A stretch of DNA of 33,046 nucleotides from Acidobacteriaceae bacterium. Its GTDB lineage: Bacteria > Acidobacteriota > Terriglobia > Terriglobales > Acidobacteriaceae. Positions 10,536 through 11,042 of the stretch are shown one piece after another (positions within the stretch are counted from its first letter, which is position 1; each line of letters opens with the position of its first letter). The notes under the pieces are model-generated. The model was not told where the DNA came from. It did no database searches and saw only the letters and a list, made by a program, of their open reading frames with translations. A program made the position numbers and the translations under genes. The stretch spans positions 1,159 through 34,204 of the forward strand of contig PMXB01000149.1 in the NCBI GenBank assembly GCA_003165935.1, given 5' to 3'.

Positions 10536-10651
10536 GACCGGTGGCGTAGGTTACGGATCCTTCGGTCGCGAGTTCGAGTCTCGCCTGGCGGGGAACTGCC
10601 AGTAGCTCAGTGGGTAGAGCGAAAATCGCCGCAGCCGCTGGTACCCCGGTC
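10536..10651 (+). ncRNA. Y RNA (YrlA-like) unit B with permuted tRNA-like module
   Basis: Closing stem GACCGG-T-GG / CCCCGGTC; core GGCGTAGGTTACGGATCCTTCG; T-arm GCGAG-TTCGAGT-CTCGC (10568-10584); hairpin CTGGC-GGGGAACT-GCCAG (10585-10602); TA; D-arm GCTC-AGTGGGTA-GAGC (10605-10620). Confidence 0.85.
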
Positions 10652-10699
10652 ATCGTTTTCCTGGCGCGATTATGAATGTCGCGCCGCAACCTCAACGCG

Positions 10700-10860
10700 G
10701 CCGGTGGTGCAGGCAACAGTTACTTCGGGAGCGGGAGATGCGGGTTCGAATCCCGCCGCGTGTGACTGGCACGCGTCGTCTAATGGCAGGACATCCGCCT
10801 TCTTATGTGCCCATTCAAAAGGGTCTGCAAGAAAGATACTGTCGCCGCTTGTTCCCCGGC
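10700..10860 (+). ncRNA. Y RNA (YrlA-like) unit C with permuted tRNA-like module
   Basis: Closing stem GCCGG-T-GG / CCCCGGC; T-arm GCGGG-TTCGAAT-CCCGC (10740-10756); hairpin CGCGTG-TGACTGG-CACGCG (10757-10775); D-arm-like GTCTAATGGCAGGAC (10778-10792). Confidence 0.83.
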
Positions 10861-10911
10861 ATCGATTCACGGCACGCGCTTTGATTGGCGCGCCAAAAGC
10901 AAGTCCACCTC

Positions 10912-11042
10912 AGCCGGTGGTGTAGGTAACGGATACTTCGCCTGTTAAGCGGGAGACGCAGGTTCGAATCCTGCCCTGAGCGCGAGCCCGGGTGGTCTAG
11001 TGGCTAAGGACGCCTATGTTCCGTACCGATTGTTCCCCGGCT
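10912..11042 (+). ncRNA. Y RNA (YrlA-like) unit D with permuted tRNA-like module
   Basis: Closing stem AGCCGG-T-GG / CCCCGGCT; core TGTAGGTAACGGATACTTCG; T-arm GCAGG-TTCGAAT-CCTGC (10958-10974); hairpin CCTGAGC-GCGA-GCCCGGG (10975-10992); D-arm GTCTAGTGGCTAAGGAC (10995-11011). Confidence 0.85.

What the first reader, a model, noticed from the sequence alone, without database searches (positions are those of the whole stretch)
10536..11042. Units B, C and D carry different D-arms and T-arms, as if each mimics a different tRNA
Seen: D-arms are GCTCAGTGGGTAGAGC (B), GTCTAATGGCAGGAC (C) and GTCTAGTGGCTAAGGAC (D); T-arms are GCGAG/CTCGC, GCGGG/CCCGC and GCAGG/CCTGC. In B the nucleotides between acceptor-like strand and D-arm are UA, matching tRNA U8-A9. 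Stem sequences differ but pairing is kept. Inference: the units could be substrates for different tRNA-modifying enzymes or decoys for different tRNA-binding proteins.
Basis: partly seen in the sequence, partly recalled or inferred. Interest (0 to 1): 0.8.

Follow-up and report, generated by a model that had tools for sequence, protein, structure and literature searches.

The report
Bacterial Y RNA array mimicking tRNAs
The units are a row of seven small Y RNA genes beside the gene for their protein partner Rsr (the bacterial Ro60); most are built around a cut-and-rejoined tRNA, and one form, found in many bacteria and phages, even shows an anticodon loop whose three letters change from species to species.

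Summary
The arms are real, and the units are bacterial Y RNAs. They lie directly upstream of a TROVE/vWA protein (Rsr, the bacterial Ro60). There are seven units, not three: a short one, A, B, C, D, then a conserved 114-aa ORF, then E and F. Circularly permuted tRNA modules in bacterial Y RNAs are known (YrlA). Comparison with about 100 genomes and 80 phage contigs adds something I could not find in the literature I could reach. B and C have the known topology, with the Y stem replacing the anticodon loop. D belongs to a second topology, in which a whole anticodon arm is kept and the Y stem enters its 5' strand. Its loop keeps U33 and purine-37, but the triplet differs between orthologs. Triplet and flanks co-vary as in real tRNAs (G36 with G37, p=6e-11). 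It also occurs in phages carrying Rsr, where three such RNAs are annotated as tRNAs. In E and F the Y stem enters the D-loop. 'Each mimics a different tRNA' holds only by class: B is generic; C and D are Gln/Glu-like; D is chimeric (Asn-like loop). Likely role: Rsr-bound tRNA mimics that engage tRNA-binding enzymes. An anticodon-nuclease decoy role is possible but untested.

The parts
10163..10223 (+). short Y RNA-like unit without tRNA arms
   Evidence: R1 covariance model E=2e-4
10336..10501 (+). Y RNA unit A: Ro-type terminal stem, no D- or T-arm
   Evidence: shared 5' GCCGGTGG..GATACTTC and 3' TTGTTCCCCGGC; R1 E=1e-5
10537..10650 (+). Y RNA unit B, type I (YrlA-like): T-arm, acceptor 3' strand, loop, acceptor 5' strand, U8-A9, D-arm; Y stem replaces the anticodon loop
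   Evidence: Rfam YrlA E=6.4e-8; R1 E=2.2e-19
10700..10860 (+). Y RNA unit C, type I, Gln/Glu-class module (U8-C9, GUCU D-stem, 4-nt variable loop)
   Evidence: R1 E=4.4e-18; D-arm closest to tRNA-Gln; Rfam YrlA E=0.02
10913..11041 (+). Y RNA unit D, type II: permuted tRNA with a complete anticodon arm; Y stem enters between nt 29 and 30 of the anticodon stem
   Evidence: R1 E=9e-27 (D is one of the model's training sequences); covariation of the type on A1; Rfam tRNA 29.9 bits
10942..10948 (+). anticodon loop of unit D, CUGUUAA (anticodon GUU), identical to the Asn tRNA loop
11081..11425 (+). 114-aa ORF of unknown function, CxxC-type, inside the array
   Evidence: related ORF in 53 of 95 rsr/Y RNA loci; no Pfam or NCBIfam match
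11455..11586 (+). Y RNA unit E, type III: Y stem inserted in the D-loop; hairpin in place of the anticodon arm
   Evidence: R1 E=1.4e-16; type III alignment
11656..11771 (+). Y RNA unit F, type III, reduced D-arm
   Evidence: R1 E=2.8e-9
11811..13178 (+). rsr: TROVE plus vWA protein, bacterial Ro60 orthologue
   Evidence: Pfam TROVE 3.9e-15 and vWA_Ro60 2.1e-6; PDB TROVE proteins 9l5y/9kop E=6e-28

Best explanation
The region is an array of seven bacterial Y RNA genes serving the Rsr (Ro60) protein encoded just downstream. Each RNA has a terminal stem of the kind that Rsr binds. In five of the seven (B-F) the other end is a tRNA whose acceptor stem is closed by a loop and whose chain is opened elsewhere, a circular permutation. 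The Y stem is attached at one of three places: in place of the anticodon loop (type I: B, C), inside the 5' strand of a complete anticodon stem (type II: D), or in the D-loop (type III: E, F). Shown here: the array, its conserved link to rsr, the folds by covariation, and real-looking anticodon loops with varying triplets in type II. Inferred: Rsr holds the stem while the tRNA-like ends are bound and modified as tRNAs and recruit or occupy tRNA-binding proteins. The three forms expose different faces of a tRNA, and only type II exposes an anticodon loop.
For: TROVE/Ro60 protein adjacent. Seven units with the same terminal stem. Rfam YrlA on B. R1 hits in 102 of 300 family genomes, as arrays beside rsr in most loci compared, upstream of rsr in Asticcacaulis, Caulobacterales, Hyphomicrobiaceae, Thiofilum and Kordia and in phages carrying rsr. 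Structure of type II: 94.1% of cells paired, 21 pairs with double changes, slid controls 36-48%. Outer anticodon pair 29-41 is UG, GC, UA or CG; in 8 units it is G-C where the competing local pairing would be a C-C mismatch. Loop: U33 88/95, A or G37 92/95, 86/95 triplets are anticodons found in the two reference genomes, G36-G37 linkage 14/19 against 2/76, flanks match the real loop with the same anticodon (p=5e-5; 49 unique loops p=5e-5). Three phage type II RNAs are annotated as tRNA-Ser, -Thr and -Gln. Permuted tRNA mimicry and Rsr/PNPase binding of Y RNA are known for YrlA and D. radiodurans (PMC8394870, PMC11472068).
Against: No expression data. Single-sequence folding is not better than shuffled sequence for D (z=-0.5) and only mildly so for others; the structure rests on comparison. 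No unit reaches Rfam's YrlA gathering score. In some lineages the local pairing of the anticodon stem fits as well as the composite one (118 against 121 of 132 cells). The reference tRNAs come from this 75%-complete genome and one relative, not from every genome. Rsr binding is inferred from position and stem conservation.
Confidence: 0.85

Rival explanations
1. Type II (and other) units are decoys or sensors for enzymes that attack tRNA anticodon loops: Rsr-bound permuted tRNAs soak up or report anticodon nucleases, and the anticodon is re-drawn as the attacking nuclease changes. (A function layered on the best explanation rather than a denial of it.)
For: Anticodon triplet varies between orthologs while loop architecture is kept, with tRNA-like flanks. 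Close phage pairs differ in the triplet: CcrColossus CTG against CcrPW TAG in units otherwise 96% identical (2 of 7 substitutions in the triplet); Xanthomonas phages GTT against TGT with rsr 97% identical. Rsr and Y RNA arrays in tRNA-rich phages; in G291 rsr lies within a run of about 15 tRNA genes next to rtcB. A competitive-inhibitor role of YrlA was suggested in PMC7790460.
Against: No nuclease found in or near the array; PADLOC finds nothing for rsr or the ORF. Fragments of Salmonella YrlA were not seen during tRNA cleavage (PMC7790460). Triplet variation is also what lack of constraint would give. No RtcB match in this 75%-complete genome.
Confidence: 0.3
2. The tRNA fold is kept only as a stable, general handle for Rsr, PNPase or tRNA-modifying enzymes; the triplet and arm differences are neutral drift within that fold.
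For: No isoacceptor identity is conserved; T- and D-stems vary with pairing kept. Known YrlA works as a PNPase tether without an anticodon arm (PMC8394870).
Against: Neutral drift does not by itself explain why triplet and flanking nucleotides are linked as in real tRNAs (G36-G37, p=6e-11) or why the 7-nt loop with U33 is kept in type II at all.
Confidence: 0.45
3. The units are degenerate or ordinary tRNA genes.
For: Unit D reaches the Rfam tRNA gathering score; some phage relatives are annotated as tRNAs.
Against: ARAGORN finds no tRNA. Halves are in permuted order with the acceptor stem closed by a loop, so there is no CCA end; the terminal stem is shared and the array sits next to rsr.
Confidence: 0.02

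Closest known systems
YrlA-type bacterial Y RNA (Rfam RF02553; Salmonella structure 6CU1)
   Same: Next to rsr; terminal stem plus circularly permuted T-arm, closed acceptor, U8-A9, D-arm. B and C have this topology.
   Different: All units score below the Rfam gathering threshold. D keeps a full anticodon arm, absent from the Rfam consensus. E and F are opened in the D-loop. Seven units in one array.
Deinococcus Rsr-Y RNA-PNPase complex (RYPER)
   Same: Same protein family and RNA class.
   Different: PNPase tethering not testable here; no rtcBA operon around this rsr.
tRNA and phage-encoded tRNAs
   Same: T-, D- and, in type II, anticodon arms follow tRNA rules.
   Different: Permuted chain, no 5'/3' acceptor ends, no CCA.
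tmRNA
   Same: Non-coding RNA with a tRNA-like domain.
   Different: No tmRNA found; no acceptor end; partner is Rsr, not SmpB (the last from general knowledge).

Membership tests
Bacterial Y RNA (Rsr partner) | gene beside a TROVE/Ro60 orthologue | tested here: met
   Pfam TROVE and vWA_Ro60 at 11811-13178; the link repeats in relatives
Bacterial Y RNA (Rsr partner) | terminal stem formed by 5' and 3' ends, conserved | tested here: met
   helices 1 and 2 of A1, 100% and 84% of cells paired, 8 pairs with double changes
Bacterial Y RNA (Rsr partner) | at least one unit with a permuted tRNA-like domain | tested here: met
   B, C, D; E and F in modified form
Bacterial Y RNA (Rsr partner) | binds Rsr, links it to PNPase | not testable with these tools
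   needs pull-down
Rfam YrlA RF02553 | gathering score 69 bits | tested here: not met
   best 43.9 bits, unit B; no relative reaches it in 13 loci scanned
Rfam YrlA RF02553 | no hairpin between Y stem and T-arm (type I topology) | tested here: not met
   met by B and C, not by D and its orthologs, which carry an anticodon hairpin
tRNA | canonical order with free acceptor ends and CCA | tested here: not met
   no ARAGORN call; acceptor strands joined by a loop

The most novel reading that the evidence does not exclude
A widespread second class of Y RNA, in bacteria and phages, presents a complete, interchangeable tRNA anticodon arm on the Ro60 ring as bait or sensor for anticodon-loop enzymes such as anticodon nucleases, and its anticodon is swapped in an arms race.
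Probability: 0.27. Interest if true: 0.85.

Novelty: new variant of a known kind. Interest (0 to 1): 0.62.

Why it matters
Why bacterial Y RNAs imitate tRNA is an open question. A class that keeps a whole anticodon arm, with real but lineage-specific anticodons, in hosts and in phages, turns that into direct tests: is the loop bound, modified or cut, and does it protect tRNAs? It also shows that some phage 'tRNA' annotations are Y RNAs, which affects surveys of phage tRNA content, and that Rfam's single YrlA model misses most of this diversity.

Tried and rejected
Single isoacceptor identity per unit: rejected, the two halves point to different tRNAs. Simple local hairpin for the whole anticodon stem of D: not supported in lineages with C-C or C-A at the third pair, though not excluded in all. 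Dependence on RtcB: not supported here, since RtcB was not found in this incomplete genome and lies near rsr in only three of the loci compared. Sigma-70 promoters: none found in 9800-13300, uninformative. Minimum-energy folding: weak. PADLOC and PHROGs on the 114-aa ORF: no useful match. The primary papers on bacterial Y RNAs (Chen 2014, Wang 2018, Sim 2018 and 2020, Burroughs 2016) are not held, so I cannot exclude that an anticodon-bearing form was noted there.

Full report
What is there. The finding's arms are present letter for letter. They lie in a run of repeated units whose ends read GCCGGTGG...GATACTTC and TTGTTCCCCGGC. Directly downstream, at 11811-13178, is a protein with a TROVE domain and a Ro60-type vWA domain, related over its whole length to solved TROVE proteins. 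Rfam's model of the bacterial Y RNA YrlA matches unit B over its full length (E=6.4e-8, below the curated cut-off), C partly, and D marginally. The units are therefore bacterial Y RNAs, partners of Rsr, the bacterial Ro60. This class, including its circularly permuted tRNA-like domain and its use as a substrate by TruB and DusA, is known (PMC8394870, PMC11472068).

How many. A covariance model (R1) built from D and 17 orthologs finds seven units in the window: 10163-10223, A, B, C, D, E and F. Such arrays precede rsr in most related TROVE loci, and R1 hits occur in 102 of 300 genomes of the family. Named relatives are Granulicella, Edaphobacter and other Acidobacteriota; related Rsr proteins with Y RNAs beside them occur in Asticcacaulis and other Caulobacterales, Hyphomicrobiaceae, Devosia, Thiofilum and Kordia.

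Three topologies. Type I (B, C): the anticodon stem runs into the Y stem, as in the Rfam YrlA consensus. Type II (D): alignment A1 shows Y stem, T-arm, closed acceptor hairpin and D-arm, and in addition a 5-bp anticodon stem with a 7-nt loop. The inner two pairs use the strand coming from the Y stem, the outer three use the strand after the D-arm, so the Y stem enters between positions 29 and 30. 94.1% of cells pair, slid controls 36-48%, and 21 of 33 pairs show changes on both sides. Pair 28-36 of the alignment takes four forms (CG, AU, UA, GC). In a wider set of 44 units the outer pair 29-41 is G-C in eight units where the competing local pairing would be C-C; overall both pairings fit most units (121 and 118 of 132 cells), so the composite form rests on covariation. 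Type III (E, F): the 3' half of the D-arm (GGTAGAGC) comes first and its 5' half (TAGCT) last, so the Y stem sits in the D-loop; the anticodon arm is a hairpin with a short loop. A and the 61-nt unit have no tRNA arms. Folding of single sequences is only weakly better than shuffled, so comparison carries the structural claim.

Do they mimic different tRNAs? Compared with tRNAs of this genome (75% complete) and of a complete relative, C's 5' half is nearest to tRNA-Gln, B's is generic, D's is weak; the 3' halves point elsewhere. By class there is real coherence: GUCU-type D-arms go with 4-nt variable loops in 11 of 11 units, GCUC-type in 14 of 60 (p=1.7e-6), as in Gln/Glu tRNAs. So B and C/D imitate different tRNA classes, but no unit copies one tRNA.

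Anticodon loops. In 49 bacterial type II units and 46 viral ones, U33 is kept in 88 of 95 and A or G37 in 92 of 95, while the triplet varies widely (GTT 22, TGT 8, GCT 6, GAC, CAT, GTC, CTG, TGG and others). 86 of 95 triplets are anticodons found in the two reference genomes. G37 accompanies G36 (14 of 19) and hardly ever another base (2 of 76; p=6e-11), the rule of real tRNAs. Flanking bases match the real loop with the same anticodon beyond chance in the bacterial set, in the viral set on its own, and with unique loops only. Relatedness among sequences is not fully removed by these tests. Triplets with U36 dominate (54 of 95).

Phages. 86 phage records carry an Rsr relative. Y RNAs lie beside rsr in Brevundimonas, Caulobacter, Xanthomonas, Rhizobium, Microcystis and Streptomyces phages, and in many viral contigs. 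Features annotated as tRNA-Ser (Gurke), tRNA-Thr (10KY502B) and tRNA-Gln (CcrColossus) are type II Y RNAs whose anticodons (GCT, TGT, CTG) fit the names given. CcrColossus and CcrPW differ in 7 of 159 aligned positions of this unit, 2 of them in the triplet; two Xanthomonas phages with 97% identical rsr carry GTT and TGT.

Mechanism. Best supported: Rsr-bound Y RNAs whose outer end is a permuted tRNA, handled as a tRNA by tRNA-binding proteins, in three forms that expose different faces. A decoy or sensor role for anticodon-loop enzymes would explain the varying but genuine loops, their presence in tRNA-rich phages, and the G291 locus where rsr lies inside a run of about 15 tRNA genes beside rtcB. 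Wolin and colleagues raised competitive inhibition as a possibility (PMC7790460), and phage tRNAs are proposed to counter anticodon nucleases (PMC10264068). It remains inference; neutral variation within a tRNA fold is the main rival.

Novelty. Bacterial Y RNAs with tRNA-like domains are known. Type II and type III topologies and the variable anticodon are, as far as I could check, not described, but the primary papers were not available, so this is filed as a new variant of a known kind.

Noticed in passing
window 11081-11425: 114-aa CxxC protein of unknown function inside the Y RNA array; related ORFs in 53 of 95 rsr/Y RNA loci compared.
   Followed up: partly
L160 (G002:C1:1228477-1232305) and L068 (G000 contig C107): Compact array of 24 divergent tRNA genes of most isotypes in a relative; a shorter run of five on a contig of the window's genome.
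   Followed up: no
L099 (G291:C1:2133000-2141500): rsr lies within about 15 tRNA genes and next to rtcB, with a type II-like unit.
   Followed up: partly
L256 2802-2876, L265 2831-2898, L259 2161-2228: Phage features annotated as tRNA-Ser, tRNA-Thr and tRNA-Gln are type II Y RNAs.
   Followed up: yes
type II loops: U36-containing anticodons (the t6A37 class) make up 54 of 95 loops; GUN triplets, the colicin E5 and queuosine class, are frequent.
   Followed up: no
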